Assembly (NCBI GenBank): GCA_030018475.1
Contig: JASEFT010000005.1
Location: 1-32,451, forward strand
Direction: 5' to 3'
From: Candidatus Thermoplasmatota archaeon
GTDB lineage: Archaea > Thermoplasmatota > JASEFT01
DNA length: 32,451 nucleotides
Shown: in pieces, positions 3,647-24,185 of the stretch
Layout of the letters: each line of letters starts with the position of its first letter
How positions within the stretch are numbered: the stretch's first letter is position 1
Program-made: the position numbers and the translations under genes
The notes under the pieces: generated by a model
The model's input: only the letters and a program-made list of their open reading frames with translations
Told to the model about the DNA's origin: nothing
The model's database searches: none

Positions 3647-6357
3647 GTGTATTTGAGCTACTAGATATTAAAATACAGAAATTGCTGGCTGCAAAAGGGT
3701 TGGCAGAGCCGACAGAGTCGCAGGCTCTTGCAATACCTGAAGTAATTAAAGGCGAGAATATTCTTTTGATTGCCCCCACTGGCATAGGCAAAACAGAAGC
3801 TGTGGTTCTTCCGCTACTACATAAAATGATAACTGAACGCTTATCACCTATCTCTATTCTTTATATTACACCACTTCGTGCGCTCAATCGCGATTTGTAC
3901 TCTAGACTCTTATTCTGGTGCTCTAACTTAGGAATTAACTTGGCAGTAAGGCATGGCGATACCACGAAGCAAGAGCGTAGAAGGCAGCTGCTGCATCCGC
4001 CAGATATTTTAATAACAACGCCCGAGACTTTACAACTATTGTTAATAGGCAAGCGCCTTAAAGAGCTTTTGAAAAATATTAGATGCGTAATAATAGATGA
4101 GGTTCATGAGCTTGCAGTCAGTGAAAGAGGGGCACAACTAGCAATTGCATTAGAGCGCTTGGAAGAACTTGTTAATAAAGAATTTCAAAGAATAGGCTTG
4201 AGCGCTACTGTGGGTAGCCCAGAAATTGTAGCTAGCTTCGTGGCAGGCAGTAGAAAAATAAAAATTTTAAAAACTAACATTGCTAAAAGGCTGGAAATAA
4301 GTATTGTCTCTCCTCAGTCAAATGATAAAATTAAAGAGCTGGCTGATAAACTAGGAGTAGAGACTAAACTTATAGCTCTACTATCTAAAGCTTGGAGCTT
4401 GATTAAAGAGCATAATTCAACTCTTTTATTCGTTAATACACGCGATGCCGCTGAGTTCCTAGCTTCGCAACTCAGAAGGTGGGATGCGCAACCGCAGATT
4501 GGGATACATCATGGCTCGCTTTCAAAAGAAGTAAGGACGAAAATGGAGGAGGATTTTAAAGCTCAGAACTTAAAAGCGCTTATAGCAACTTCAAGCTTAG
4601 AACTAGGTATAGATATAGGCACTGCCGATTTCACTATCCAGTACAATTCGCCAAGACAAGTTTCAAGACTAGTGCAACGTGTAGGGAGAAGCGGTCATAG
4701 AGTTGGCGAGCTTTCTAAAGGTGCTCTGATTGCTACAAGTGCTGATGAGCTTGCAGAAAGTTTTGTAATTGCTAGAAAGGCGTTAAATGGTGAGCTGGAA
4801 GGTATTGAGGTCAGAGATTCGCCACTCACAGTACTTGCAAATCAAATAGTAGCCTTTGCGCTAGCTGGTAGGCACAATATTGAGCATGCTTATAAAACAA
4901 TTACAAAAGCTTATCCCTTCAGAAATTTAAGTTTTGAGAAATTTAAGAGCACATTAGAGCTTTTAAAGGCTCAGAGATTATTACATGTAGAAGGAAATAG
5001 TTTTAGAGCACTGAGACTAGGCAGAGAATATTTTTACGAAAATATTTCTATGATACCTGATGAAAAGGTATATCACGTCATTGATATTACAACGAGGGAG
5101 CGAGTTGGTACGCTGGACGAGCGTTTTGTGGTTAGCTACCTAGACAAAAATAAAAGTTTTACTATGAAAGGCCAGTCTTGGACTGTGAGCAGCATAGAAG
5201 AAGACAGAATTTTTGTGACTCCAGCTCATGGTATAGGCGAAATTCCTTCTTGGCTCGGCGAAGAAATCCCTGTGCCTTTTGAAGTTGCCCTTGAGGTGGG
5301 CGATCTAAGGGAAGCTATAGCTGAAGGCAAATCTCAAGCTCACGAGCTAAAGCTTTTCACAGAATACATTGAAACTCATAGGAAAGCCAACAAGCTTGTA
5401 CCGAACGGTAAACTTATTACTATAGAAAAAGGCAGTGGTTTGATAATATTGAACGCATGCTTTGGCACTAAAGTAAATCAAACTCTAGCTCAAATTATTT
5501 CTACTTTATTAGCTTCGCGGATAGGTAGCAGTGTTGGAGTACATTCCGACGCTTATAGAGTCATTTTTGAGCTACCCGAAAATGTAAATACCGAGCTAAT
5601 TGAAGAATATTTTAGAACTACAAAGCCTGAGCTTTTAGAAAGCTTTGTAAAAGTTAGTTTGAAAAATTCTAGCTTGTTTAAATGGTATCTTTTACATACA
5701 GCTAAAAAATTCGGCACTTTAAGTAAAAGCGCTGACAGGCAGATAGGTCTTCGTAAAATTCTAGACTCTGTTAAGGATACGCTTATCTGGGAAGAGGCGA
5801 TTGCTAAAATTTTATGGGATAAAATGGATATTGAAAGAACGAAAATGATTTTAACTAAAATCCAAGCCGGAGATATTAAAGTTAGTATTACTAATCTTAC
5901 GCCTATAGGCTTGGAAGGCTGTGAAAGGAGAAAAGAGCTTATATTGCCTGAGCGCGCTGAGAGAGAAATTCTTGAGCTGTTAAGGAGAAGGCTGGAAAGT
6001 AAAAGAATTTCAGTGGTATGTTTGAGCTGTAAAAAGGCAAGAAGTTTAACTTCAAAAGATTATTTACCTAAATGCCAATCCTGCAACTCAGTGCTTCTTG
6101 GAGTGGCTGAGAATGAGACAGTAGAAAATTTCAGAAAGGGCAGACTTTCTAAAAAAGAATTGTTTAAACTCAAAAAAAGCGCTAATCTATTACTTTATTA
6201 CGGCGCTAGAGCTTTGCTTGCGTTCGCTGCCAGAGGCGTTGGCGTAGAAACAGCTGCTAGAATACTAGGAAAGCCCTGTTTTACAGAGCAAGATTTTCTA
6301 AGAGAGCTCCTTAGAGCTGAAATAACATATGCAAGAACTCGTAGATTCTGGGATTGA
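3643..6357 (+). CDS. Lhr-like SF2 DEAD/DEVH-box helicase
   Basis: A 904-aa superfamily 2 helicase with the Lhr core. Walker A is APTGIGKT at residues 44-51, motif II is DEVH at 152-155 and motif III is SAT at 187-189. The RecA2 motifs include ATSSLELGIDIG and QRVGRSGHR. These are followed by the winged-helix and Lhr-specific region, with a Cys4 pair (CxxC near 791 and CxxC near 810) likely to bind zinc. Archaeal Lhr proteins unwind DNA/RNA hybrids or forks and are implicated in repair. The ATGA overlap ties it to the upstream phosphoesterase. The exact aLhr subgroup is not certain. Confidence 0.93.
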   Translation: MSVFELLDIKIQKLLAAKGLAEPTESQALAIPEVIKGENILLIAPTGIGKTEAVVLPLLHKMITERLSPISILYITPLRALNRDLYSRLLFWCSNLGINLAVRHGDTTKQERRRQLLHPPDILITTPETLQLLLIGKRLKELLKNIRCVIIDEVHELAVSERGAQLAIALERLEELVNKEFQRIGLSATVGSPEIVASFVAGSRKIKILKTNIAKRLEISIVSPQSNDKIKELADKLGVETKLIALLSKAWSLIKEHNSTLLFVNTRDAAEFLASQLRRWDAQPQIGIHHGSLSKEVRTKMEEDFKAQNLKALIATSSLELGIDIGTADFTIQYNSPRQVSRLVQRVGRSGHRVGELSKGALIATSADELAESFVIARKALNGELEGIEVRDSPLTVLANQIVAFALAGRHNIEHAYKTITKAYPFRNLSFEKFKSTLELLKAQRLLHVEGNSFRALRLGREYFYENISMIPDEKVYHVIDITTRERVGTLDERFVVSYLDKNKSFTMKGQSWTVSSIEEDRIFVTPAHGIGEIPSWLGEEIPVPFEVALEVGDLREAIAEGKSQAHELKLFTEYIETHRKANKLVPNGKLITIEKGSGLIILNACFGTKVNQTLAQIISTLLASRIGSSVGVHSDAYRVIFELPENVNTELIEEYFRTTKPELLESFVKVSLKNSSLFKWYLLHTAKKFGTLSKSADRQIGLRKILDSVKDTLIWEEAIAKILWDKMDIERTKMILTKIQAGDIKVSITNLTPIGLEGCERRKELILPERAEREILELLRRRLESKRISVVCLSCKKARSLTSKDYLPKCQSCNSVLLGVAENETVENFRKGRLSKKELFKLKKSANLLLYYGARALLAFAARGVGVETAARILGKPCFTEQDFLRELLRAEITYARTRRFWD

Positions 6358-6370
6358 AAGAAAAGAAGCA

Positions 6371-6383
6371 AAAAATTAAATAA
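6371..6383 (+). promoter_or_regulatory. TATA box of kptA-rpoD
   Basis: The AT tract AAAAATTAAATAA precedes kptA. The ATG at 6411 is about 28-40 nt downstream, so a leaderless start there fits better than the GTG at 6399. Confidence 0.4.
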
Positions 6384-6410
6384 TATCGAAAATATTTAGT
6401 GCATAGAAAA

Positions 6411-7040
6411 ATGCTAAAAGAGTGTTCTCAACATGGGTTTTTTAGAAATGATAAATGTCCTCAATGCCAGAATAATGGCAAGTTTATAATGAGTGATAAG
6501 GAGCTCAACATGATCGGCAGAATAATGGCAGGGGTATTGCGCCATTTTCCGGAAAAATTTAATTTGAAAATGGATGAGCATGGATGGATAGAGTTATATG
6601 CTTTCGTAGATTCCCTCAGAAGATTCCCTGCCTTCAAATGGGTAAAGCCACACCATATAAAAGCAATTGTAGAAACTGATCCTAAAGGTAGATATCAACT
6701 GCAGAATAATAAATTAAGAGCTACTTATGGTCACACCTTAAGTTTAGAACTAGACTTACCTACAAATGAAATACCCGAGAAGCTCTACTATCCTGCAACT
6801 GATGAAGAGTGCGAAATAATTTTAGAGACTGGTATAAAGCCAGTGGATAGGAAGAAAGTTCATTTAAGTAAAACCAAAGAATTAGCACTTGAGGCAGGTA
6901 AAAGCAGAGTAGAAAGACCTATAATTCTAGAAGTTGATGCTAAAAAAGCTTGTGAGGAGGGTATTATTATAAAGCGAGCCGGAAGGACAGTGTATATTAC
7001 AGACGAAGTGCCTGGAAAATACTTGAAAAGAGTTGAGTGA
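6411..7040 (+). CDS. kptA: RNA 2'-phosphotransferase (Tpt1/KptA family)
   Basis: Transfers an internal RNA 2'-phosphate to NAD+, giving ADP-ribose 1'',2''-cyclic phosphate. The archaeal N-terminal Cys motif is present (C..HGFFRNDKCPQC). The body carries LRHFP (the R-H catalytic pair), RATYGHT (second Arg and His) and a later Arg in SRVERPIILEVD. These correspond to the family's Arg-His-Arg-Arg set. I start it at ATG 6411; an in-frame GTG at 6399 would add four residues. The stop lies one base before the rpoD ATG, so the two genes are probably co-transcribed. The physiological substrate in archaea is unsettled, because archaeal tRNA splicing does not leave a 2'-phosphate. Confidence 0.92.
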   Translation: MLKECSQHGFFRNDKCPQCQNNGKFIMSDKELNMIGRIMAGVLRHFPEKFNLKMDEHGWIELYAFVDSLRRFPAFKWVKPHHIKAIVETDPKGRYQLQNNKLRATYGHTLSLELDLPTNEIPEKLYYPATDEECEIILETGIKPVDRKKVHLSKTKELALEAGKSRVERPIILEVDAKKACEEGIIIKRAGRTVYITDEVPGKYLKRVE

Positions 7041-7041
7041 T

Positions 7042-7872
7042 ATGAAGATAGAACTAAGAGAATTAAAAGAAAGAGCAATGAAATTTGTAGTGGAAGATAC
7101 TTCTGTCAGCTTTTTAAATACTTTAAGAAGAGTTTTGCTCAAGGACATTCCTAAACTTGCAATTGATACTGTAGAATTCCATCTGGGTACACTTACGGAT
7201 GAAAAAGGAAAGGATTATGAAAGTATAGCACCTCTTTTCGACGAAATTATAGCTCATAGGCTTGGTATGGTGCCTATACCTACAGACTTGAGTTTATTTG
7301 TACCTAAAGATAAATGCAGATGCCAAGGAGCTGGATGCCCTAGCTGTGAGCTTGTATATACTCTAAAAAAATTTGGTCCGTGTACGGTTTATTCAGAAGA
7401 CCTTGTGCCAACCGGCGGCGAAAATTTTAAAATAAAAGAACATAAAATTCCTGTGGTAAAGCTAGGCCCTGACCAAGGACTGTTTGTTACAGCTACTGCA
7501 AGGTTAGGTACTGCGAAAGAGCATGCTAAATGGCAAGTGGCAACAAGCGCTGGCTATAAGCATTATCCTGACATAAAAATCAGCTCCAAAAAATGCAATT
7601 ATTGTAACGATTGCGCTAAAATCTGTCCTAAAGGTGTAATTAAAATTACAGGTAAAAAGATAATTTTAGAAAATCTAGAAGAATGTACACTCTGCAAAAG
7701 CTGTGAAGAAATATGCAGGAAAGAAGCAATTAAAGTGATTGCTAACAATAGAAAATTTATATTTAAATTCGAGACCGATGGCTCACTTAGCGCGAAAGAG
7801 ACTTTAGAAAAAGCGTTAGAAATTATCAAATTAAAATGTAAAAATTTTGAAAGTGGATTGAAAATGATTTAG
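7042..7872 (+). CDS. rpoD: DNA-directed RNA polymerase subunit D (Rpo3)
   Basis: The alpha/Rpb3-like assembly subunit, which pairs with subunit L. The N-terminus MKIELRELKERAMKFVVEDTSVSFLNTLRRVLL and the later HRLGMVPIP block are diagnostic. A Cys cluster of form CxCx4CxxC (KCRCQGAGCPSC) matches the Rpb3-type zinc site. An inserted ferredoxin-like domain near residues 183-233 has two complete CxxCxxCxxxC sets, so it could carry two [4Fe-4S] clusters. I prefer the ATG at 7042 over the upstream TTG at 7033, because family members begin with this strand. No ribosomal genes flank it, although rpoD usually sits after S13-S4-S11 in archaea. Confidence 0.96.
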   Translation: MKIELRELKERAMKFVVEDTSVSFLNTLRRVLLKDIPKLAIDTVEFHLGTLTDEKGKDYESIAPLFDEIIAHRLGMVPIPTDLSLFVPKDKCRCQGAGCPSCELVYTLKKFGPCTVYSEDLVPTGGENFKIKEHKIPVVKLGPDQGLFVTATARLGTAKEHAKWQVATSAGYKHYPDIKISSKKCNYCNDCAKICPKGVIKITGKKIILENLEECTLCKSCEEICRKEAIKVIANNRKFIFKFETDGSLSAKETLEKALEIIKLKCKNFESGLKMI

Positions 7873-7909
7873 ACTGTCTTCTTTAACAGCTCCCAAATTA
7901 GAATAAAAA

Positions 7910-7919
7910 GGTTTTTAAA
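7910..7919 (+). promoter_or_regulatory. TATA box of the lipoprotein operon
   Basis: TTTTTAAACC lies about 24-33 nt before the ATG at 7943. It follows the rpoD stop by about 40 nt and probably starts a two-gene transcript (7943-8685). Confidence 0.45.
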
Positions 7920-7942
7920 CCATTATAGAGATTAACATAGTT

Positions 7943-8368
7943 ATGAAAAAGAGGAGCTTAGTGTTATCTGCTGTAATGCTCTCTTTGATGCTTGCAGGCT
8001 GTATAGGTCCTATCACGAGCATAACTGCAAGACCTCACCTGATTATAGATTATGTAGATAGCTTAACAAAAATATACATAGCAGCATGGGGGGAGGTTAG
8101 AAGATATACAAGAATAGAGCTGTGTATCAATCAAACTACAGTTATAAATGAAACTGAGGTCTGCATGGTATTCTATAACACAAGCAGTACGATATTTTCT
8201 CTTAATGCAACTGTTGTAGATAGCAAGATCAATACTATTTACTACTACGACTGCTTAATAGAAATTTTAGACAATGAGCTTGTAATGAAGTTAATTGAGG
8301 ATAGCGAAGTAAAAGAAATCAAGCGTATGGAGTTGCCTGTTATAAGAGTAATGCTGGTGAAAGAATGA
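7943..8368 (+). CDS. predicted lipoprotein of unknown function
   Basis: A 141-aa exported protein. The N-terminus is a clear lipoprotein signal: two Lys and an Arg, a hydrophobic stretch, then the lipobox LAGC with Cys near residue 19. The mature part is beta-rich and has several N-x-S/T sequons (for example NQT, NET and NTS), consistent with an extracellular glycosylated domain. The stop overlaps the next start as ATGA, so it is co-translated with a two-TM protein. I recognise no domain family. Confidence 0.75.
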   Translation: MKKRSLVLSAVMLSLMLAGCIGPITSITARPHLIIDYVDSLTKIYIAAWGEVRRYTRIELCINQTTVINETEVCMVFYNTSSTIFSLNATVVDSKINTIYYYDCLIEILDNELVMKLIEDSEVKEIKRMELPVIRVMLVKE

Positions 8369-8685
8369 AAATTCCTAAACTTTACATTCTCACAATGGTC
8401 ATACTGATGATTCTAGGATTTTTTATATTCGCAGTTACTTTTAGAGTTATTTCTTTACCAGATATAACCTACCTTTACACAGCGCTATCCACATTCCTTT
8501 TGGGCTGGATTGCTATACTCATATTAGCAATAATAGGCGCTGTGTTCTTAGGAATGTATTTAAGTCATAGAATACTTCTTACAAAGGATTTTACACCTTT
8601 TGAAAAAGCTATGCTGGAAATGAAAGAAGATATAGCTGAGATAAACAGAAAATTGGATAGTATCGAAGGTAAAATCAAGCTTTAG
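8365..8685 (+). CDS. small two-TM membrane protein with C-terminal coiled coil
   Basis: A 106-aa protein with hydrophobic helices at about residues 8-28 and 40-66. A charged helical tail (EKAMLEMKEDIAEINRKLDSIEGKIKL) has heptad spacing and is probably cytoplasmic. It overlaps the upstream lipoprotein gene by four bases (ATGA). The pairing suggests the two work together at the cell surface, but that is inferred from coupling alone. The family is not recognised. Confidence 0.72.
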   Translation: MKIPKLYILTMVILMILGFFIFAVTFRVISLPDITYLYTALSTFLLGWIAILILAIIGAVFLGMYLSHRILLTKDFTPFEKAMLEMKEDIAEINRKLDSIEGKIKL

Positions 8686-8687
8686 AT

Positions 8688-9482
8688 TCAGACTAACTTT
8701 TCGCTGCAGTAACTTCTTCTGGAGCAATTCCTGCATTTACTAACTTTTTTATGGTCTCTATGAACTATTCCTGTCCTTAGAGCTTCGCGCATTCCGTTTG
8801 CCTTTTTGAGTGCAGTTTCTCTGAGCTCGTCACTAATACTGATTTTATATTGGTTCTTACCATATACTAGCATTCCGTAAGCTACTTTACCGTATCTTTC
8901 TTCTGTAATTAATGAATAAGCAACTAGTTGAATTATATGCGAGAATAAAGGGCCTCTTGGTACTCTACCTGCCTTGAACTCTACAGGGACGTAACCGTCG
9001 TTAATTCTAATCACATAGTCTGGCTTGCCTATGAGTTTGTGCTTATTACTTACTAAATTAGGAGAATACTCATCAGCTATATATTCAATTGTACCTGAGG
9101 GTATAGCTGCAACCTCTCTGCTGCTCATTAAAAGTTTAGCCGATTTTAAAGCTACAAAAAGGAAGAAAGCACTAGCTACAAGCCAGATTGCGGCAATTAC
9201 CATTGCAATAATACTCGCTACTACCATCTGCGAGATGTAAATACCTACCCCAACAATGCTCAAAATAGATGCGCTCGTTGCAAGAATGGCAATCATAAAT
9301 TCGCTTGTGAAGAGCTTTTCCTCTTCCTCTTTAATAACTGAGAGACCTCTCTCCAGTTCTTTATGTTCGTCAATACCTTCTTTAAGCTCTTTACCTTTGC
9401 CAGCAATGCCCTTTCTTGCCAGCCACCAGCTTAGAGGGCAATAGGCATATTTTTCAAGTTCGCCTGCAGAAATAAACTCCAT
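8688..9482 (-). CDS. membrane-inserted Cas4-like PD-(D/E)XK nuclease
   Basis: A 264-aa protein with the Cas4/Dna2-type layout. C15 lies in KYAYCPL, D155 in GKPDYVI, the E-x-K site is E168 and K170 in VEFKAG, and Q185 is in QLVAY. C250, C253 and C259 complete a likely 4-Cys Fe-S site with C15. Two adjacent TM helices (about 62-83 and 86-112) are inserted between the first Cys and the nuclease core. I start at the ATG at 9482; the longer frame to 9608 reads through the tRNA gene and is rejected. An AT tract near 9507-9520 is a plausible TATA. No CRISPR array or other cas genes are in the window, so a role in DNA processing outside CRISPR is likely. Confidence 0.82.
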   Translation of the reverse strand: MEFISAGELEKYAYCPLSWWLARKGIAGKGKELKEGIDEHKELERGLSVIKEEEEKLFTSEFMIAILATSASILSIVGVGIYISQMVVASIIAMVIAAIWLVASAFFLFVALKSAKLLMSSREVAAIPSGTIEYIADEYSPNLVSNKHKLIGKPDYVIRINDGYVPVEFKAGRVPRGPLFSHIIQLVAYSLITEERYGKVAYGMLVYGKNQYKISISDELRETALKKANGMREALRTGIVHRDHKKVSKCRNCSRRSYCSEKLV

Positions 9483-14799: not shown

Positions 14800-15752
14800 T
14801 TGAAGATTATTTACAATCTGGGATGGAAGATGCATACCCACATAAATAAGAGCGGCAGCTCTTTAAGCTTTAGCTTTAGTGTGGGGGGAGGCAAAAGGCA
14901 GAACAAATACGGATTAAAGAGTTTGGCCAATTCTTTTAGTGTAGTAGGTATGGTGTGCTTATGCCCAACTTGTAAACAAACTTAAGCAAAATTGGGGTGT
15001 TAAAATTGCAAGAGCAACCCCTTGGTACTGGGTACAAGAGCTTGGGATGAAAGCTAAACAAGTTTTCGCTAATGAAATTGTTCCAAATTTAAATCGTCCT
15101 AGAGTAATGGAGTTTGATGAGTTTTATGTTAATACTTCTGGAGGCACAGGAGGAATACTTAATGCAATAGATTCAGAAACCTTGCTAAATTTCCATAGCT
15201 CTTTGTGCATGGGAGTAAACACAGAAAAGGCAGAAGAAGTTTTTAAACACCTTCTAGATTTGGGTATCAATCCAGAGATAGGAATCACAGATGATAGCAA
15301 GATCTATCATTCAATCTGGAAATATTTTGGTGCAAAGCACCCCCTTTGTGAATTTCATCTTATGAGAAATATATTCAAAGATTCACAAAAGTTAAAGAGA
15401 ACAAAATCTAAAAAGAAAAGAGAGCGATTACTGAAGAAAATAATAAAAAATTGCAGAATATTTTTTTCACAAAGGAGATTTGGCGAAAAATATAATACAA
15501 CGAATAATCTAGAAAGAATGGAGACATTTCAAAGAGACAGGATCAATAGAATAGTACATTTCGGTAAAGAATCTACTGGAAATAATTTTTTGGAAGATAT
15601 ATAGATTCTATCAGAATTTTAGGAAATTCTCGTTTGGTAAAAGGGCAGGATACTCGCCGGTAGAACTTGCTGGATTAAAACGAGAAGGAAAAGACTGGCT
15701 AGAATATTTAGGAACTCCAAAGCTGAAGTTAAATGTGGAGATGATATTCTAA
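14800..15752 (+). pseudogene. DDE transposase, frameshifted
   Basis: Three pieces make one transposase. The first, from 14800, ends with a GLKSLANSFSVVGM helix. A frame change near 14950 leads to QLVNKLKQNWGVKIARATPW (HTH). Then comes the catalytic core: VMEFDEFYVN (first Asp), GITDDSKIYHSI (second Asp), HPLCEFHLMRN and TTNNLERMETF (probable Glu). A run of six T bases near 15585-15590 shifts the frame again. The next frame gives FYQNFRKFSFGKRAGYSPVE and ends at TAA 15750-15752. A protein-level break at both sites makes it non-functional unless the shifts are assembly errors. Confidence 0.8.
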
Positions 15753-15921: not shown

Positions 15922-17106
15922 ATGAACCCCTATGCGATACCGTCGCTTATCGGATTTAGCATTCTAGTAGGTATAGGGATATATGTTTTATACAAAAATC
16001 CCAAAAATAAGATAAATAGGGTGTTTTCTCTTGGTGTTTTGGCCGGTGTGATTGCGATTTTCGGTGAATTCATGAAAAGAATTTCTACGAGTGATGAACT
16101 GGCATTATTTTGGGGCAAAGTTGAAATTTTTGGATGCATACTAATACCCCCTGCCTTTCTTCATTTCACTTACGTTTTTCCTAAAACAAGAATTAAAAAA
16201 GAACGCTTTCTTTTTGTTGTTTACCTGCCTATTCTCATTCTTTTGCCGCTATTAACTACAGATCTACTGGTTAAAGGCACTCATATATACTATGCTGGAT
16301 ACGGGATAGCTTGGGGACCGCTGCTCCCTTTTCTCTCTGCCTATCTAATACTTTTATGTTGTTATGGATTTGGCAATTTAGGAAAGAGCTATATTTACTC
16401 TGATTCACAAATCGAGCGAGTACAGATTAAGTTTGTGACTATAGGGATAGCTATCGTTGGTGTCGCAACCCTATCAACATCAGTTATGCCATCCATCCTA
16501 AGTATCCTTTTGGCTAGGGAGATTGAGATATATCCGTTAAGTAGCAGTGCCGGTGTAGTGACTGCAGGGTTCGTCGCATACGCTATCGTAAAATACAAAT
16601 TATTTGTTATCACACCTACCGCCGAGAATTATATAGAAATACCCAAGTACGAATTAAGGCCTAGATATAGTTATCTCGTAGAAGAAGAAAAAGCAACCAA
16701 AAGTTTTGAAATATTTGCAGATCAAGTTACCCATGGAATAGAAGGTCTCTGCATATCAAGGAAACATCCAGAGCTTATCAAAGAGAGGTACGGTCTTGAT
16801 AAGGTACCAAAAATATGGCTCACAGCAGAAATTGCTGACGATAGCCTCAAACCAACAGACCTAGCTCTACTAACACTAACAATAAGAGATTTTATAGATA
16901 AAACTGAAAATGGCGTGGTCCTTCTGGATGGAATTGACTATCTTTTGTTAAATAACAGTTTTGAGAGCGTAGTTAAAACTCTTAACAGCATAAACGATTC
17001 GATTATGAGAAGTAAGAGTAGATTAATCTTATCAATCAATCCAGCTGAATTCTCTGCTAAGCAGTTTGCGCTGCTTTCAAAGAATTTAGAGAAAATCGAG
17101 ACTTGA
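15922..17106 (+). CDS. multi-TM receptor-like protein with C-terminal DUF835 domain
   Basis: A 394-aa protein. Residues 1-230 form about seven TM helices resembling the N-terminal 7TM region of membrane histidine kinases, with the sequence FGEFMKRIS between helices and HFTYVFPKT after the third. Residues about 250-394 are a DUF835 domain: YSYLVEEEK, EGLCISRKHPELIKERYGL, WLTAEI, GVVLLDGIDYLLLNNSFESV and SRLILSINPAEFS. That layout suggests a membrane sensor with a cytosolic DUF835 output. There is no kinase or phosphoacceptor motif. The next genes are a 95-aa protein and a KaiC-like ATPase. DUF835 function is not established. Confidence 0.83.
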   Translation: MNPYAIPSLIGFSILVGIGIYVLYKNPKNKINRVFSLGVLAGVIAIFGEFMKRISTSDELALFWGKVEIFGCILIPPAFLHFTYVFPKTRIKKERFLFVVYLPILILLPLLTTDLLVKGTHIYYAGYGIAWGPLLPFLSAYLILLCCYGFGNLGKSYIYSDSQIERVQIKFVTIGIAIVGVATLSTSVMPSILSILLAREIEIYPLSSSAGVVTAGFVAYAIVKYKLFVITPTAENYIEIPKYELRPRYSYLVEEEKATKSFEIFADQVTHGIEGLCISRKHPELIKERYGLDKVPKIWLTAEIADDSLKPTDLALLTLTIRDFIDKTENGVVLLDGIDYLLLNNSFESVVKTLNSINDSIMRSKSRLILSINPAEFSAKQFALLSKNLEKIET

Positions 17107-17150
17107 TGTCTAGGGTCTAAAAAAGCAGAAGCTGCTGTTCAAAAGCCTGT

Positions 17151-17214
17151 ATTTAAAAAGTATCACTTTTCTTGTGGAGACCTTATCTCTCCCCGCCTTA
17201 AAAGATAGTAAGGT
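17151..17214 (+). promoter_or_regulatory. TATA box and structured leader before the 95-aa gene
   Basis: The TATA element ATTTAAAAAG at 17151-17160 would start RNA near 17178, leaving a leader of roughly 55 nt. The region around and inside the leader can form either of two hairpins. GGAGA/TCTCC is at 17176-17180 and 17188-17192. ACCTTA/TAAGGT is at 17180-17185 and 17209-17214, extended by TCT/AGA. The two share bases and exclude each other. The structure is plausible but may be chance. Confidence 0.35.
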
Positions 17215-17235
17215 TTAATACAGAAAATAACAGTT

Positions 17236-17523
17236 ATGTCTACAGAGATAAAAATGGACGAGGAACAAACCAGTGAGCTTACGAACCTAGAGAAAGAGTG
17301 GTGTGAGTATCTCAAAAGAGCTTTCGGAGCGCTTGCTCCGACAATATTAAAGCTCCAGAAAGAAAAAATAGGATTACTCGGGAATCTTTCTTTTGGGGAT
17401 TATCAAAAGCTTGCCGAGCAGATATACACAATTTGTATTGAGATGGTAGGTGAGAATTACGCGCAGAAAATACGCACCGAGCTGCTGAGCATTCTTAAAA
17501 AGTGGGAGGGAAAAAATGACTGA
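17236..17523 (+). CDS. small helical protein upstream of a KaiC-like ATPase (95 aa)
   Basis: A predicted all-helical acidic protein. Hydrophobic positions fall in helical periodicity (EKEWCEYLKRAFGALAPTILK, then LSFGDYQKLAEQIYTICIEM). There is no signal peptide or TM helix. It overlaps the KaiC-like gene by 8 nt, so translation is coupled and a shared complex is likely. No family is recognised. Conservation alongside KaiC-like/DUF835 neighbours in related genomes would decide whether it is a dedicated partner. Confidence 0.68.
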   Translation: MSTEIKMDEEQTSELTNLEKEWCEYLKRAFGALAPTILKLQKEKIGLLGNLSFGDYQKLAEQIYTICIEMVGENYAQKIRTELLSILKKWEGKND

Positions 17524-18232
17524 GAATATAGAAAGAATGAGAACGTACATTAGAGGTTTAGATGAAAAACTCTCTGGAGGTATACCAAAAAACTTTATAA
17601 TACTTGTATCAGGCACTCACGGTACAATGAAAACTTCTCTTTGTTTTAATATACTCTATAACCTTGGCGTGAAAGAAAACATTAAAAGTCTTTATCTATC
17701 TTTTGAGCAAGAGAGAAATTCGCTATTCCAACAGATGGTATCTTTAGGCATGAATGCGGAAGAGATAGAGAAACATATACTGGTAGTAGATATAGGCGTA
17801 CTTCGAAAATTGCTGAAGGAAGCTAATAAACCAGTTAATAAAGCCGGATGGATAGAGCTTGTGCTAACCCATATTCAAACGGTTAAAGACACAGATAAAA
17901 TCGAAGTAGTGGTTTTAGATTCTTTAAATGCGTTCGGAGCATTCCCAAAAGAACCACTTACAAGAGATGACACGTACCATTTTTTTGCTAGACTTAGAAA
18001 TATCAGTGCCACTGTATTTCTAATCTCGGAAATGACCATGGGATCTAATGTTTTTGAGATATTTGGTGGAGAACCATATCTATGTGATGGTATAATACAT
18101 CTAGACCTCCGCCGCGAGAAAATGGCTCTTAAACTAATGCTTGGGATAATAAAAATGAGAGCTACAGAAATTTCAAGGGTATATACTCCTTTAGTTTATG
18201 ATAAAAAAGGTTTTACGGTAATACCTGAGTAA
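17516..18232 (+). CDS. KaiC-like RecA-superfamily ATPase
   Basis: A single-domain 238-aa member of the KaiC-like family. It has RGLDEKLSGGIPKNFIILVSG at the N-terminus, Walker A GTHGTMKTS at residues 33-41 (Met in place of the usual Gly before the Lys), LYLSFEQ, Walker B VVVLDS at 131-136, and the C-terminal IIKMRATEISRVYTPL followed by GFTVIPE. Archaeal members act as switch ATPases in signalling. The gene is coupled to the 95-aa protein and runs tail to tail into the STAND gene with a 20-nt overlap. Its partner may be the DUF835 receptor upstream. Confidence 0.85.
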   Translation: MTENIERMRTYIRGLDEKLSGGIPKNFIILVSGTHGTMKTSLCFNILYNLGVKENIKSLYLSFEQERNSLFQQMVSLGMNAEEIEKHILVVDIGVLRKLLKEANKPVNKAGWIELVLTHIQTVKDTDKIEVVVLDSLNAFGAFPKEPLTRDDTYHFFARLRNISATVFLISEMTMGSNVFEIFGGEPYLCDGIIHLDLRREKMALKLMLGIIKMRATEISRVYTPLVYDKKGFTVIPE

Positions 18233-21044
18233 CGCTATTCCCTATTTCCCGGTAGAGTTTATTCACAGCTTGGATCCCAAGCTTGTCATCAATTCGCTTT
18301 AAAACCGCTAACGATTTGTCAAGATATTCCTTTGCCCTATCTCTATCGCCTTTTTTTAAGTGAATCTCACCCAAAGAAAGCAACGACCTACCAGTAAGGA
18401 ATTTATTACCTATTCGCTCTGCGTACCTTCTACATTTTTCAAAACAATCAATAGCTCTATTCAAATCTAGCTTCTTTAAATATACGTCTCCCATACCTTT
18501 ATATGCTCTTGCAAGCTCGCTCGCATTCTCGACTTTTTCCAGCACTTTTAAGCTTTTCTCATAATACTCGAGCGCTTTATCACCCTCTCCTCGCTCCCTG
18601 TAAGTATTGCCAAGCTCTATAAAAGTAAAAGCTAATACCCATGGATCTTTATATTTTTTTATACTGGGCAATGCCAGAACATATTCTGGTAGTTTTTCTT
18701 TGTCCCTTTCCCAATAAAAAATCTGAAGACTTTTTTGCAATTTAGTGAGCTCGGGCACGGTAGCGCGGTTTGATGCATGCAAACTCTTCATATAATTCTT
18801 CATTGCCTCGTACCATTTACCTCTCTGCTTCTCTACACTCGCGATCTTTTTATGCAACTCTGCAACTTTTAACCTATCCCCAAGTTTTTCATAAATCTCT
18901 AATGATGCGGAATAATAGCTTAGGGCTTTCTCCCAAGTTTCAAGCATTGCGGAAACGTCCCCTTTAAGTAACAAAAGTTTGCTCCAGTCCATCTTGTCAA
19001 TAAATGCTTCATCAAACTCTTTAAGAATATCTCTACACTCTTCCCAATATTTTTTAGAGATTAAATCTGGGGCCTCTCTAAATACAAGGTTTAAAGCGCT
19101 TTCATAATCTTTTGCTTTAAGAAAATGAAATATAGCTTCTATTTTGGCTTGGTCTTCCCTCTTTTCTTTATAATACATACCAGCGGCTCTATGATAACTC
19201 ATCTTTTGAGGATGTGAGAGTGTTTTGTATACTACCATTTTTATTACCTCGTGCAAGCTGTAGGCATCGATATATCTATCAAATAATGATTTCTCAACTA
19301 AACTATCAATAATATCGGGCTCGATATCCGCGTCAAGCATCGCCTTAGCATCGAATGGACATCTGAATACTGATGCAAGCTCTAACGCTTTTCTTTCACC
19401 TACGTCAAGCCTTTTGAGTATCTCTTCTCTGAAAAACTTTCCCATCTCTTCTCTTGTCTCTGCCGTTACCAGCTCGAGCGAAAGAGGATGACCGCCAGTT
19501 AGTTTATAAAGTCTTTCGTGTTCCTCCTTTTTAACTCCACGTTTAGCTAGCAATTTGTAGCTATCGTCTCTATCTAACCCACCCAATGTAAGTTCGGTTA
19601 CAATCTTCTTTATAACCACATCTCTTCTATCGTAAAATGAAGGAATTGTTCTCCCAATCACAATAATTTTACTATCCTCTACCAAATCTTTAAAAGAGCT
19701 AAGAAAATTTATAATATCCTGGTTTGCTTTTTGTATATCGTCAAACACTAGTAGAGAGAGCGTGCCTTTTATTTCTTCTCCCAAAACTGCTAATAGCTCT
19801 TCCAAATCAAACTTCTCTCTATCAAGACAGTTTCTCAATTTAGTTCGTTCTAATTTAACCAGAAACTCTGAGAACTTACTAAACAAATTACGAAGTGTAG
19901 TGAACTCATAGAATCTATGCCAAAACACATTCATCTCAATGCTTTCTATAAACTTTGAGGCTAATACTGATTTCCCTATACCTGCAATACCTTTTATACA
20001 AAGTACCTTTGATCTTGATTTTAGAAATTCATATAGAGCCTTTAACTCCTTTTCCCTACCAAAGAAATATCTAACTTCAGGTCTTCTTTCTGAATAATCG
20101 ATAAATCTTTTTGGCTCGAGTATTGTTCTAAGGTCAATAAAACCTTCTGGGGTGATGTTCTTGATGATGTTTGTATAATTTATTTCTACAGGTGCTATCT
20201 TCCCGGGTTCATAAACCTCTATAGTTTGTGTGAGCAGCGATATTTCCTTTTCAGAGAAGACCACCGGATTTATTGGTAGGATTAATATCCCATCGTTCTT
20301 CGCTACGATATCTGTTGTAGTTTTTACCCATTTCAAACACTGATCAAAACCATTCACTTGCGATAGGTACTCAAATCCCTCTAACATTATCACAGGTTTG
20401 TCATTTTCCTTTAAGAAGTTAGAAATAGTTGCCATGATTTCGAAGTCCAGCCTATCAGGCTTAAGAATATTTTCACCTTCTACTTCTGAAAGCCAGAACG
20501 ACTCAGCTCTCAGACCATACTTCTCCCTTATTTTTCTTGGTGAATGATCTGAAATAACTACCCCCTCATACCTTTCTTCCAACAGCCTTTTAAAGACTTC
20601 GTATGCCATATCTGGTTTCTCACCTTTCACTAGGTAGGAGCGACCTGGCTCTATAGGCTTTTTGGCTGTTTTCTTCAAATAACCAAGCAGCTCAGAAATT
20701 TTCAGCTCCCTGAGTTCATCTCTCTCCCTAACCTTTACCTTCCTTTTACCAATTTCTTCCTGCAACTCTTCTGCCTTTGCTATGCCCTCCCGGGTGAGGA
20801 AATAGAAATCACGAAATCTTCCTGTTTCTGGGACGTAATATCTTCTCTCTTCGATCAAACCATCTCTGACAAGGTCTTTCCGCGCCTGGAGAAGCAGTGG
20901 ACGGGAGATGTTTATAAGATCAAGCATCCCTGTAGGTGAGAAAAAGCGTGGAGGTGCACCTTTAGCAGGCAGATGAAGTTGTTCATCTATATGGTCGAGA
21001 AGGAAAAGCAGCATCTTTTCTTTTGCAGAGAGGGGGACGGGCAT
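18213..21044 (-). CDS. winged-helix / DUF835 / STAND NTPase / TPR fusion protein
   Basis: A 943-aa protein with four parts. An N-terminal winged helix is at about 1-95 (SRPLLLQARKDLVRDGLIEE, then FYFLTREGIAKAEEL). A DUF835 domain is at about 133-285 (SYLVKGEKPDMAYEV, PVIMLEGFEYLSQVNGFDQC). A STAND NTPase follows: FFGREKEL at 327-334, P-loop GIAGIGKS at 352-359, Walker B LLVFDD at 431-436 and GGHPLSLEL at 517-525. TPR-like helices run from about 665 to 930. STAND proteins are ligand-triggered switches, and the winged helix implies DNA binding or a transcription role. An AAGGAG motif 13 nt upstream of the ATG supports the start. It may instead be a defence sensor. Confidence 0.9.
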   Translation of the reverse strand: MPVPLSAKEKMLLFLLDHIDEQLHLPAKGAPPRFFSPTGMLDLINISRPLLLQARKDLVRDGLIEERRYYVPETGRFRDFYFLTREGIAKAEELQEEIGKRKVKVRERDELRELKISELLGYLKKTAKKPIEPGRSYLVKGEKPDMAYEVFKRLLEERYEGVVISDHSPRKIREKYGLRAESFWLSEVEGENILKPDRLDFEIMATISNFLKENDKPVIMLEGFEYLSQVNGFDQCLKWVKTTTDIVAKNDGILILPINPVVFSEKEISLLTQTIEVYEPGKIAPVEINYTNIIKNITPEGFIDLRTILEPKRFIDYSERRPEVRYFFGREKELKALYEFLKSRSKVLCIKGIAGIGKSVLASKFIESIEMNVFWHRFYEFTTLRNLFSKFSEFLVKLERTKLRNCLDREKFDLEELLAVLGEEIKGTLSLLVFDDIQKANQDIINFLSSFKDLVEDSKIIVIGRTIPSFYDRRDVVIKKIVTELTLGGLDRDDSYKLLAKRGVKKEEHERLYKLTGGHPLSLELVTAETREEMGKFFREEILKRLDVGERKALELASVFRCPFDAKAMLDADIEPDIIDSLVEKSLFDRYIDAYSLHEVIKMVVYKTLSHPQKMSYHRAAGMYYKEKREDQAKIEAIFHFLKAKDYESALNLVFREAPDLISKKYWEECRDILKEFDEAFIDKMDWSKLLLLKGDVSAMLETWEKALSYYSASLEIYEKLGDRLKVAELHKKIASVEKQRGKWYEAMKNYMKSLHASNRATVPELTKLQKSLQIFYWERDKEKLPEYVLALPSIKKYKDPWVLAFTFIELGNTYRERGEGDKALEYYEKSLKVLEKVENASELARAYKGMGDVYLKKLDLNRAIDCFEKCRRYAERIGNKFLTGRSLLSLGEIHLKKGDRDRAKEYLDKSLAVLKRIDDKLGIQAVNKLYREIGNSVTQVLP

Positions 21045-21115
21045 GTTTATATTTATCTCCTTGCTCGCTCATAATTGTTTCTGTTTTTTACGTTGGGTTT
21101 ACATTGGGATTCGTG

Positions 21116-21123
21116 TTTATATA
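21116..21123. promoter_or_regulatory. TATA box between divergent STAND and KaiC-like operons
   Basis: TTTATATA with its near-palindromic surround GTTTATATAC lies about 72-79 nt before the STAND ATG (minus) and about 75-82 nt before the 49-aa gene ATG (plus). It could serve both sides. In each case a leader with a Shine-Dalgarno motif precedes the start: AAGGAG on the minus side and AGGTGAG on the plus side. Confidence 0.45.
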
Positions 21124-21197
21124 CCCTTAGTTACAAGGTAGTTTTTGATGAAAAAATAATGACCTTCGAAATCCCCCCTCAAGCTAGAGGTGAGACT

Positions 21198-21347
21198 ATG
21201 ACTGACAAGAAAACAGGTCTGGAAGCTATTGCCAAGGCGGCTTTGCAAGCTACCTTTACTCTTACAATTGTTGACGCTTATCAAGGCGGTCTTACAGACT
21301 CTAGATGTAATGTATTCGTAACTGGTCGCACAGAGGCGATAAAATGA
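21198..21347 (+). CDS. small protein of unknown function (49 aa) before a KaiC-like gene
   Basis: A 49-residue frame beginning MTDKKTGLEAIAKAALQ. I choose this ATG because a strong AGGTGAG Shine-Dalgarno sits 3 nt before it (21188-21194). Starts further upstream would lack one. The stop overlaps the next ATG as ATGA. It contains one Cys and an aromatic near the middle. It has the same operon position as the 95-aa gene before the other KaiC-like ATPase, so it could be a partner peptide, but I see no family. Confidence 0.6.
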   Translation: MTDKKTGLEAIAKAALQATFTLTIVDAYQGGLTDSRCNVFVTGRTEAIK

Positions 21348-22075
21348 CCGAAGAGATTGGTTGGCGTGACGGTTGGGAGCAGATAAAAACATTCATGGAA
21401 AAAGGCTCGACCGAGATCATCAACACAGGCTACAAGAAACTAGATGATTTGCTTGGCGGTGGGCTAATAAAAGGCTCTACCAATCTCGTCATCGAAGATT
21501 CTGGCTGCATAGGTCATATATTCCTTGTGTCATTGCTGAAAAAGAGGGTAGAATTTGGTGATATTGGGGTGATTGACTGTTTCTTTATTTCGCCAGAGCA
21601 GTTGAAGGAGCAGTGCAGAGCATATAATATTGATTTGGATAAATATGATGGTAAGGTTTATTACCTAGATTTCTCCTCGAAACATCGGGTGAAATCTGTT
21701 TTGGGCTCTGACGCTTTAGATACTTTTGCAAAAGAATATACAAGAGTTGTATCTGAGCTCATACCAAAGGGCGATATATTCAATATAAATCTCTCTTTGT
21801 CCGCATCCACCATGAGATACGGTGAGGAGCAGATTTATAGGCATTTGCTCAGAGAGAAAGGGAATTATGAGACATATAAGAGGACCGCCATCTATCTTGT
21901 TGAGAGAAATCTTCATACCCAAGAGTTTATGAACGGTCTCAGGCGTATTTTTGATACTGTTATAAACCTTAATTCGACTATTCATGACGGCAGAATCGAC
22001 AGGTTTGTTTCTGTTGAGAAATCACCTCTGCGAAGTTACTCTGTGAAAAAAAAATCAGTTATGAGATTGCTCTAA
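21344..22075 (+). CDS. KaiC-like protein with degenerate Walker A (pseudo-ATPase)
   Basis: The N-terminus INTGYKKLDDLLGGGLIKGS is the hallmark of KaiC-like ATPases. The expected P-loop that follows is replaced by EDSGCIGHIFL, with no GxxGxGKT. A KaiC-like middle follows (VVSELIPKGDIF, RTAIYLVERN) and no clean Walker B is seen, so ATP hydrolysis is unlikely. The frame stops at a TAA at 22073-22075 just after a run of nine A bases. One slip there opens a further 29 codons that read like the family C-terminus. It is coupled to the 49-aa gene by ATGA. Confidence 0.75.
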   Translation: MTEEIGWRDGWEQIKTFMEKGSTEIINTGYKKLDDLLGGGLIKGSTNLVIEDSGCIGHIFLVSLLKKRVEFGDIGVIDCFFISPEQLKEQCRAYNIDLDKYDGKVYYLDFSSKHRVKSVLGSDALDTFAKEYTRVVSELIPKGDIFNINLSLSASTMRYGEEQIYRHLLREKGNYETYKRTAIYLVERNLHTQEFMNGLRRIFDTVINLNSTIHDGRIDRFVSVEKSPLRSYSVKKKSVMRLL

Positions 22076-22131
22076 GCCCCGGCGAGATTGTTTTCGGCGG
22101 AAAAATAGGGTCTTATAGAGTGATAGAATGA
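22046..22131 (+). other. frameshifted C-terminal extension of the KaiC-like protein
   Basis: After the nine-A run at 22046-22054, the -1 frame reads ISYEIALSPGEIVFGGKIGS, then YRVIE and a TGA at 22129-22131. KaiC-like proteins typically end with such a beta-rich tail. The extended frame ends exactly at an ATGA overlap with the 22128 gene, the pattern used by neighbouring genes, and this supports it as the ancestral reading. It could be a decayed gene, a sequencing error, or polymerase/ribosome slippage. Confidence 0.6.
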
Positions 22132-22340
22132 GAAAGATAGATTGGTTGAATTGGAACGGGAGCAGAAAGGAAAACGAGAACAAGGCAAGACTCCAAGCAT
22201 TACACATCCTGATAAATCAGGATTTTGTAGATGGGGATCTTGTTGAGAAATTGTTTAGGGAGATTTTGAAAATCCACAGTCCTTCTTTCATTTATGAAGA
22301 AGGAAGTTTGAGAAAATACCAGGCAAAAAGAAAAATATAG
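22128..22340 (+). CDS. small protein of unknown function (70 aa)
   Basis: A charged 70-residue protein, MRKIDWLNWNGSRKENENKA at the start, then a helix with HILINQDFVDGDLVEKLFRE. There are no cysteines, signal or TM. Its ATG is overlapped by the TGA of the frameshifted extension of the KaiC-like gene, so it was probably co-translated with it. No family is recognised. A third small protein beside a KaiC-like gene makes an operon role more plausible. Confidence 0.55.
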   Translation: MRKIDWLNWNGSRKENENKARLQALHILINQDFVDGDLVEKLFREILKIHSPSFIYEEGSLRKYQAKRKI

Positions 22341-23060: not shown

Positions 23061-24185
23061 TTGTGTATGCAAACAAATATGGTGGTTGGGAGATTCGTTG
23101 GGACAGAGGATGAGATTTTAGTGTATGGTAATAGAGGGTTATTTTTTGATAAGGTTAGAAAAGCTACTAACGCATGGAAAAAAGTGATGGGGTGTTTTAT
23201 ATCCTATTCACACGGTTTAAATTTCACCGGTGAAGGTATTTTTGTTAGTGAAACCATTCGTGAAACTTTCGAATGGTTCTCGAAATATTCTATATTTACC
23301 GCAAACACTACAGCTATTATAGAAAACCTTACAAAAGGTGTAGGTATATGGTATCATTCCTCTCATGGATGGATAAACTTTACATCTAATGAAGGTGGTA
23401 TTTATGGCTGGAATGGATTTTGTGAAAGAAGTTATGAGGAGGGTGGCAATCTCTCAGAACCAGATGCGGATAAGACTGGCTTGGTTGACCCCAAAAATAC
23501 TAAAAAAATCACAGAAGATGATTTTTCCTCAATAAAATTAAAAAATACTGTATGCATCATTTTGGCTTGCAAAATAGGTAGTAGTAATTTTCCATACACT
23601 TTACTCGGCTCTGGGGCAGCTTGTGTTATAGCAAGCCCTGTTGAACTCAGTTTCAGACAAGGTGGTTTTTTAACCAATAAGGTTGGTGAGTTACTCGTAA
23701 ACGGCGAGACTATAGGGAATGCAATTAAAATCTCAATAAATCAAACAAAGGAAAGAACAGAAGAATTTGACGCGCCGTTTTTATGTTTTGGTGAGCCAAG
23801 CATCAAGGTCTTGGATCATAAAATTAAATGTGAGGTATCTGTCCCCAAAAAGATTTTGATTCCAGAAATAACAAAAATAAATATTCGTGTTTTTAATGAA
23901 GTTGGAAAGCCTGTCCATGATGCAGATGTTAAGGTTAATAACACGAATGCTAAATATAACCCACTTTTTAATTCATATTCTATTTCTTGCAGCATGCTTT
24001 CGGATTATACCAATAATGTGACTGTTGAGATCCATAAGGATATGTGCGGCACACTAACGTTAAATACCACCGTTTATGTGTATCCAAAGGTCTACAGGGT
24101 TACCCTATTCATCATTTGTGGTTTAGTAATTAGTATGATTGCAATTGTTTTTTGGAGATATAGAACAAAGAAAAAACTATCATGA
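23061..24185 (+). CDS. C25/caspase-like surface protease, N-terminally truncated
   Basis: A clan CD-type fold: HSSHGW with a catalytic-type His near residue 102, ILACKIGSSN with Cys near 170, a GAACVIASP loop, FLTNKVGELLVNGETIGNAI and FLCFGEPSIKVLD, the pattern of gingipain-like C25 peptidases. A beta-rich domain follows (about 265-345), then a TM helix (about 349-369) and a basic RYRTKKKLS tail. Several N-x-S/T sequons suggest an outside location. No signal peptide is present. The same frame is open upstream to about 22920 with coding-like sequence (YNISFAGKGY) but no ATG, so the original N-terminus is missing. The first start is TTG 23061 or ATG 23067, probably not native. Confidence 0.75.
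   Translation: MCMQTNMVVGRFVGTEDEILVYGNRGLFFDKVRKATNAWKKVMGCFISYSHGLNFTGEGIFVSETIRETFEWFSKYSIFTANTTAIIENLTKGVGIWYHSSHGWINFTSNEGGIYGWNGFCERSYEEGGNLSEPDADKTGLVDPKNTKKITEDDFSSIKLKNTVCIILACKIGSSNFPYTLLGSGAACVIASPVELSFRQGGFLTNKVGELLVNGETIGNAIKISINQTKERTEEFDAPFLCFGEPSIKVLDHKIKCEVSVPKKILIPEITKINIRVFNEVGKPVHDADVKVNNTNAKYNPLFNSYSISCSMLSDYTNNVTVEIHKDMCGTLTLNTTVYVYPKVYRVTLFIICGLVISMIAIVFWRYRTKKKLS

What the first reader, a model, noticed from the sequence alone, without database searches (positions are those of the whole stretch)
15922..22340. Candidate system: two KaiC-like units around a winged-helix/DUF835/STAND/TPR protein
A DUF835 receptor-like membrane protein, a 95-aa helical protein and a KaiC-like ATPase run head to tail. 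Opposite them is a 943-aa protein with DUF835, a STAND NTPase and TPRs. Divergent from that lies a 49-aa protein, a KaiC-like protein without Walker A and a 70-aa protein. DUF835 appears in two proteins, and each KaiC-like gene has a small coupled upstream partner. I know of no described pathway with this set. The arrangement suggests a sense-and-switch module, possibly a signalling or defence system. Function is inference.
Basis: inference. Interest (0 to 1): 0.8.

Follow-up and report, generated by a model that had tools for sequence, protein, structure and literature searches.

The report
KaiC switch wired to STAND regulator
In an uncultured archaeon, a membrane sensor, a small helper protein, a clock-family ATPase (KaiC) and a large gene-regulator-like protein sit together, and pieces of this set recur side by side in many related archaea, so it is probably a signalling circuit of a predicted but almost untested kind, with a link to a regulator that I found described nowhere.

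Summary
All seven genes exist at the stated coordinates with the stated domains. The left half is a real, partly conserved module. B (95 aa) belongs to a new small helical family: in a B-first scan of 390 genomes of the phylum, all 18 strong hits (the window's own included) lie directly upstream of a KaiC on the same strand. KaiCs of this type carry an unusual Walker A, GxxGx[M/L]K[S/T]; 26 of 80 such loci have a DUF835 gene nearby, against 0 of 31 control regions. DUF835 models as a KaiC/FlaH fold without a P-loop, matching its published label 'inactivated KaiC'. The KaiC-STAND link recurs: in Aciduliprofundum, B-KaiC faces a DUF835-carrying STAND-TPR protein with overlapping gene ends, as here. 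The receptor-KaiC link recurs in the sister family and, together with B, in L292. The right half (49 aa, dead KaiC, 70 aa) shows no conserved tie to the left: relatives of the dead KaiC sit with REC-DUF835 genes. Best reading: membrane input, then KaiC with adaptor, then a DUF835-docked STAND transcription switch. No evidence for defence. A new variant of the published 'KaiC hub' idea; the mechanism is inferred.

The parts
15922..17106 (+). A: membrane receptor-like protein, HisKA_7TM domain followed by C-terminal DUF835 (dead-KaiC fold)
   Evidence: Pfam; full-length homologue G001:C218, 36% identity, adjacent to a KaiC (L223); same architecture with two DUF835 domains next to KaiC in L292, L331, L333, L334
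17236..17523 (+). B: 95-aa three-helix protein, proposed KaiC adaptor; founding sequence of the B family used here
   Evidence: no Pfam match; AF2 model pLDDT 82, three helices; 18/18 strong homologues directly upstream of KaiC
17516..18232 (+). C: single-domain KaiC-family ATPase, Walker A GTHGTMKT (Met instead of Gly before Lys)
   Evidence: Pfam; tree and motif; 78/80 relatives share the Met/Leu variant
18213..21044 (-). D: (winged helix)-DUF835-STAND NTPase-TPR protein, proposed transcriptional switch; gene end overlaps C by 20 nt
   Evidence: Pfam; full-length paralogue G000:C48, 44% identity; same architecture in G253 and G256; DUF835 AF2 model pLDDT 89, best fold match FlaH 4yds E 2e-6
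21045..21197 (.). 153-nt divergent intergenic region between D and E; candidate control region
   Evidence: sequence read; promoter function is inference
21198..21347 (+). E: 49-aa ORF with Shine-Dalgarno AGAGGTGA, stop overlaps start of F (ATGA)
   Evidence: codon usage coding-like; not found next to F homologues
21344..22075 (+). F: KaiC-like protein without Walker A (standalone inactivated KaiC family)
   Evidence: Pfam 2.1e-10; hhalign with KaiC profile prob 93.7, E 1.9e-7; four homologues 44-48% identical over the alignment, all lacking a P-loop lysine
22128..22340 (+). G: 70-aa ORF, weakly supported as a gene, unconserved in the genomes searched
   Evidence: Shine-Dalgarno-like GAGTGAT and codon usage; no homologue in 5 other genomes

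Best explanation
A, B, C and D are parts of a KaiC-hub signalling circuit. A is a membrane receptor whose cytoplasmic end is a P-loop-less KaiC-fold domain (DUF835). C is the active KaiC ATPase, made together with B, a small helical adaptor. D carries a second DUF835 on a STAND ATPase-TPR regulator with a probable N-terminal winged helix. The DUF835 domains of A and D dock on, or replace subunits of, the KaiC-B assembly. A signal at A changes the state of the KaiC ring, which releases or engages D; the STAND domain then switches and D acts on DNA, possibly at the divergent D/E promoter. Shown here: the genes, the domains, the KaiC-like fold predicted for DUF835, the conserved B-KaiC pair, and recurrence of the KaiC-DUF835-STAND and receptor-KaiC neighbourhoods. 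Inferred: physical binding, direction of signal flow, DNA binding, and any role for F.
For: B-first scan of 390 genomes: 18 strong hits (E<1e-20, 7 families by the tool's labels, the window's own B among them), all directly upstream of KaiC on the same strand. In L292 B, a B-containing 170-aa protein, two KaiCs and 7TM-DUF835-DUF835 run contiguously. B-KaiC convergent with a STAND-TPR protein carrying DUF835, ends overlapping 14-20 nt, in G033, G067, L323 and L324 (Aciduliprofundum), and a DUF835-STAND gene in tandem with KaiC in G039/L301. In these the DUF835 sits inside the STAND NTPase, whereas in D it sits before it, so the same pairing appears with two different builds. 26/80 loci of this KaiC type have DUF835 within the fetched flanks, against about 5 expected from the window genome's own density and 0/31 control regions. 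The DUF835 model matches FlaH/ArlH, DUF257, KaiC and RecA. DUF835 is tabulated as inactivated KaiC in PMC5847659.
Against: Most DUF835 genes are not next to KaiC: 6 of 60 under a strict KaiC cut-off. The closest full-length D homologues (C48, G253, G256) are not next to KaiC. In the same order, G001 and G002 have D relatives without DUF835 and no B. D's winged helix is not detected directly. No interaction could be modelled: co-folding was not available. The 80 loci are phylogenetically related, so counts overstate independence.
Confidence: 0.6

Rival explanations
1. Only B-C is a functional unit (KaiC with its helical partner, a KaiB-like or DEATH-like substitute); A, D and E-F-G are independent signalling genes that merely sit nearby in a region rich in such genes.
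For: B-C is far better conserved than any other pair. D's full-length relatives and most DUF835 genes lie away from KaiC. The genome holds about 20 KaiC and 11 DUF835 matches, so chance neighbours are possible.
Against: KaiC facing or following a DUF835-STAND protein in Aciduliprofundum and G039, and KaiC next to 7TM-DUF835 in G001, L292 and L331/L333/L334, repeat the links with different builds.
Confidence: 0.25
2. Anti-phage defence: D is an Avs-like STAND sensor, with KaiC and receptor parts as accessories.
For: STAND ATPase plus repeats resembles Avs-type proteins in outline; weak PADLOC matches to candidate STAND models (PDC-S01 3e-5).
Against: No effector domain (nuclease, TIR, protease, pore) found in D; its N-terminus resembles a winged helix and DUF835. 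No PADLOC system match beyond generic TPR/STAND. Flanking genes read as housekeeping by eye. HTH-STAND-TPR relatives are multiplied in many genomes of the phylum, as regulators are.
Confidence: 0.05
3. A timing or motility-control device: KaiC-B as an archaeal clock-like or archaellum/pilus regulator, with the STAND protein regulating surface structures.
For: PMC4858521 proposes that a KaiC plus helical partner regulates type IV pili, possibly in place of KaiB. In DHVE2-group genomes B-KaiC-DUF835 lies beside an archaellin gene. In the window genome another KaiC-DUF835 cluster lies beside an apparent gvpA.
Against: No pilus, archaellum or gas-vesicle gene was read near this locus. C has one KaiC domain only.
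Confidence: 0.15

Closest known systems
KaiC-like ATPase signalling hubs of archaea (Makarova, Galperin & Koonin 2017, as cited in PMC5847659 and PMC6393860)
   Same: KaiC ATPase, inactivated KaiC domains (DUF835), input and output domains in one neighbourhood
   Different: DUF835 joined to a STAND-TPR regulator and encoded tail-to-tail with KaiC; no paper found through the search tool describes this, but the 2017 paper itself is not held and could not be checked
KaiC (arCOG01174) + DEATH-like helical protein (arCOG03758) pair of archaeal type IV pilus loci (PMC4858521)
   Same: small helical protein and KaiC encoded as a pair
   Different: no pilus genes here; B matches no Pfam family including the DEATH-like NitrOD2/NitrOD5 models; whether B is arCOG03758 could not be tested
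MalT-type STAND transcription regulators
   Same: STAND NTPase with C-terminal TPR-like repeats and a DNA-binding-like domain (MalT model hit 3.4e-6)
   Different: the putative winged helix is N-terminal and a DUF835 domain lies between it and the NTPase
Cyanobacterial KaiABC clock
   Same: KaiC ATPase family
   Different: single KaiC domain, membrane receptor and STAND partner; no evidence of timing
REC-DUF835 response regulators (PMC5847659)
   Same: DUF835 used as signalling domain; relatives of F sit beside such a gene in G001 and G002
   Different: DUF835 is on a 7TM receptor and on a STAND protein here

Membership tests
Archaeal KaiC-hub signalling system | KaiC ATPase with intact Walker A | tested here: met
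   C: Pfam 1.4e-37 and GTHGTMKT; variant Met directly before the lysine
Archaeal KaiC-hub signalling system | partner with inactivated KaiC-fold domain | tested here: met
   DUF835 in A and D; AF2 model matches FlaH E 2e-6; F lacks the P-loop lysine
Archaeal KaiC-hub signalling system | input (sensor) domain linked to the hub | tested here: met
   HisKA_7TM in A; recurrent next to KaiC in G001, L292, L331, L333, L334
Archaeal KaiC-hub signalling system | output (DNA-binding) domain | tested here: inconclusive
   winged helix in D only via weak hits of homologues
Archaeal KaiC-hub signalling system | physical interaction of KaiC with inactivated KaiC proteins | not testable with these tools
   no co-folding or binding assay
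KaiC + DEATH-like helical pair | small all-helical protein encoded next to KaiC | tested here: met
KaiC + DEATH-like helical pair | DEATH-domain-like fold or family match | tested here: inconclusive
   no Pfam match, including NitrOD2/NitrOD5; Foldseek best hits not significant
KaiC + DEATH-like helical pair | linkage to type IV pilus or archaellum genes | tested here: not met
   none read in the window, though an archaellin neighbours the pair in DHVE2-group genomes
MalT-type STAND regulator | STAND NTPase followed by superhelical repeats | tested here: met
MalT-type STAND regulator | C-terminal LuxR-type HTH | tested here: not met
   D ends in TPRs
Avs/AVAST defence | N-terminal effector domain and database match | tested here: not met
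KaiABC clock | double-domain KaiC | tested here: not met
   C is 238 aa with one KaiC domain
KaiABC clock | KaiA and KaiB partners | not tested
   no dedicated search was run

The most novel reading that the evidence does not exclude
Archaea wire KaiC rings to STAND switches through two docking parts: a dead-KaiC domain (DUF835) and a small helical adaptor (B). Remote B-like domains are also fused to, or encoded directly after, TPR/STAND proteins in 7 of 11 weak hits, so the same adaptor fold may serve both sides, as death-fold adaptors do in animal NLR/apoptosome signalling. The Met-Walker A KaiC clade would be the dedicated hub enzyme.
Probability: 0.25. Interest if true: 0.8.

Novelty: new variant of a known kind. 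Interest (0 to 1): 0.6.

Why it matters
KaiC expansions in archaea have been proposed as the archaeal counterpart of two-component signalling, but outputs are largely unknown. A repeatable KaiC-adaptor-DUF835-STAND neighbourhood, present in Aciduliprofundum, gives a concrete input-hub-output chain to test, and a small gene family (B) that reliably marks the hub KaiC.

Tried and rejected
Defence reading: no PADLOC system. One seven-gene system: rejected, because F relatives sit beside REC-DUF835 genes in G001/G002 or alone, G has no relative in the genomes searched, and E was seen beside none of the F homologues. E-F coupling as a start-site artefact: considered because F homologues start about 20 residues later; the ATGA overlap, Shine-Dalgarno and codon usage favour the longer F. 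DEATH-domain membership of B: not shown. DUF835-first neighbourhood test: only 6/60 strict hits against 0/31 controls, weak on its own.

Full report
What is there. The window is contig 5 of a 1.41 Mb archaeal genome in 133 contigs. All seven genes of the finding exist with the claimed domains. Codon usage and ribosome-binding sequences support the small ORFs.

The B-C pair. B has no Pfam match. A first search found divergent homologues, each just upstream of a KaiC where the locus was read. A 17-row profile then scanned 390 genomes of the phylum: 18 strong hits (E 1e-21 to 1e-31), all 18 directly upstream of a KaiC on the same strand. Sixteen are printed so; the other two are hidden there by overlapping reading frames: the G067 B match (L160, about 6142-6369) ends at the KaiC start, and the G321 match ends at a KaiC with an N-terminal extension (L352). 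Eleven weak hits (E 1e-5 to 1e-8) are not next to KaiC, but seven are fused to or directly follow TPR/STAND-type proteins (L361, L362, L365, L368-L371), while the other four have unrelated neighbours. The 18 include sequences used to build the profile; the independent ones (for example G311, G345, G348, G378, some of them close relatives of profile members) obey the rule too. AF2 predicts a three-helix protein (pLDDT 82) without a significant structural match; the best plausible one is Af1502 (5a1q, probability 0.84 but E 1.6), a 'STAC' protein genomically coupled to receptors (PMC4834066). I treat that as a lead only.

The KaiC type. In a tree of 27 KaiC proteins, C and all B-linked or DUF835-STAND-linked KaiCs carry GxxGxMK[S/T], while the ordinary ones elsewhere in the tree carry GxxGxGK[S/T]; the window genome's C2 copy has Leu. 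Of 80 named relatives retrieved with a KaiC profile, 78 carry Met or Leu there; most are Thermoplasmata, with a few Hydrothermarchaeota and 'Pyrohabitans'. I found no paper on this variant, but did not search for it exhaustively.

DUF835. The AF2 model of D's DUF835 (pLDDT 89) matches FlaH/ArlH (E 2e-6), PH0250 (a DUF257 protein, from memory), RecA and KaiC. Sequence profiles alone were weak. This fits the published label of DUF835 as inactivated KaiC (PMC5847659).

Links between KaiC and DUF835 proteins. 26 of 80 loci of this KaiC type hold DUF835 in the fetched flanks, 23 of them within 700 nt; at the window genome's density about 5 are expected, and 31 control regions had none (Fisher p 8.6e-5; related species inflate this). 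Seen from DUF835, the link is much weaker: 6 of 60. Three kinds of neighbour recur. First, the receptor: a 394-aa 7TM-DUF835 homologue of A overlaps a KaiC gene by 1 nt in G001 (this KaiC is of the ordinary GK type), and 7TM-DUF835-DUF835 follows KaiC by 18 nt in L331, L333 and L334; L292 has B, a B-containing 170-aa protein, KaiC, KaiC and 7TM-DUF835-DUF835 contiguously. Second, STAND: in G033 (1,486,778 bp, probably A. boonei, from memory), G067, L323 and L324 (the last two titled Aciduliprofundum sp.) B-KaiC faces a 1147-1169-aa STAND-TPR protein with DUF835 (a second, weaker copy in some), the gene ends overlapping 14-20 nt as C and D do here; in G039/L301 a 973-aa STAND with DUF835 precedes KaiC in tandem. 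In these the DUF835 lies inside the NTPase, not before it, so they are not simple orthologues of D: the same pairing exists in two builds. Third, short DUF835 proteins directly after B-KaiC in DHVE2-group genomes, followed by a GvpD-like KaiC and a receiver protein, beside an archaellin gene.

D itself. Full-length (winged helix)-DUF835-STAND-TPR proteins exist as a paralogue in the same genome (C48, 44%) and in G253/G256 (29-31%); none of these is next to KaiC. G001 and G002 have HTH-STAND-TPR homologues without DUF835, so DUF835 was gained or lost in this family. The winged helix is seen only through weak hits of homologues.

The right half. F belongs to a small family of standalone KaiC-like proteins without a P-loop. 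In G001 and G002 its relatives follow a REC-DUF835-wHTH gene, behind a histidine kinase in G002; the paralogue in contig 28 and its syntenic relative in G001 have no signalling neighbours recognised. E and G have no detected relatives in what was searched (E was not searched genome-wide). I see no evidence that E-F-G belongs to the A-D module, beyond the shared divergent promoter region.

How it most likely works. Membrane signal at A, passed through DUF835 to a KaiC-B assembly, read out by the DUF835 of D, which controls a STAND switch and probably transcription. Docking and direction are inference. The general scheme is that proposed by Makarova, Galperin and Koonin (2017; not held, known here through PMC5847659 and PMC6393860), and a KaiC plus helical partner was described for pili (PMC4858521). 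The STAND connection and the conserved B family are the additions; whether the 2017 paper already lists them could not be checked.

Noticed in passing
L056 (own genome contig 2, 27.7-33.5 kb), 3747-9445: Three DUF835 genes, a KaiC with GTPGTLKS and a PadR-like protein with a weak MEDS match, beside an ORF that reads like gas-vesicle GvpA (by eye, not scanned).
   Followed up: partly
L134, L137, L313 (DHVE2-group genomes): B-KaiC-DUF835-GvpD-like KaiC-receiver protein beside a 539-aa archaellin-domain gene, a possible archaellum/pilus control operon.
   Followed up: partly
L361, L362, L365, L368, L369, L370, L371: Remote B-like helical domains fused to TPRs or encoded directly after STAND/TPR genes.
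   Followed up: partly
L275, L284, L285, L319: B followed by a longer KaiC (427-446 aa) whose N-terminal extension reads like helix-hairpin-helix (LPGVGMSKAK).
   Followed up: no
window 15047-15604: Short ORF with a weak Mutator-like transposase match (E 0.0036), probably a remnant.
   Followed up: no
window 23061-24185: 374-aa ORF with TTG start, possible C-terminal membrane helix and a sub-threshold Peptidase_C25 match (E 0.044).
   Followed up: no
G253 and G256 (about 2 Mb genomes): 130 or more first-look candidates for STAND-TPR homologues of D per genome, a large expansion.
   Followed up: no
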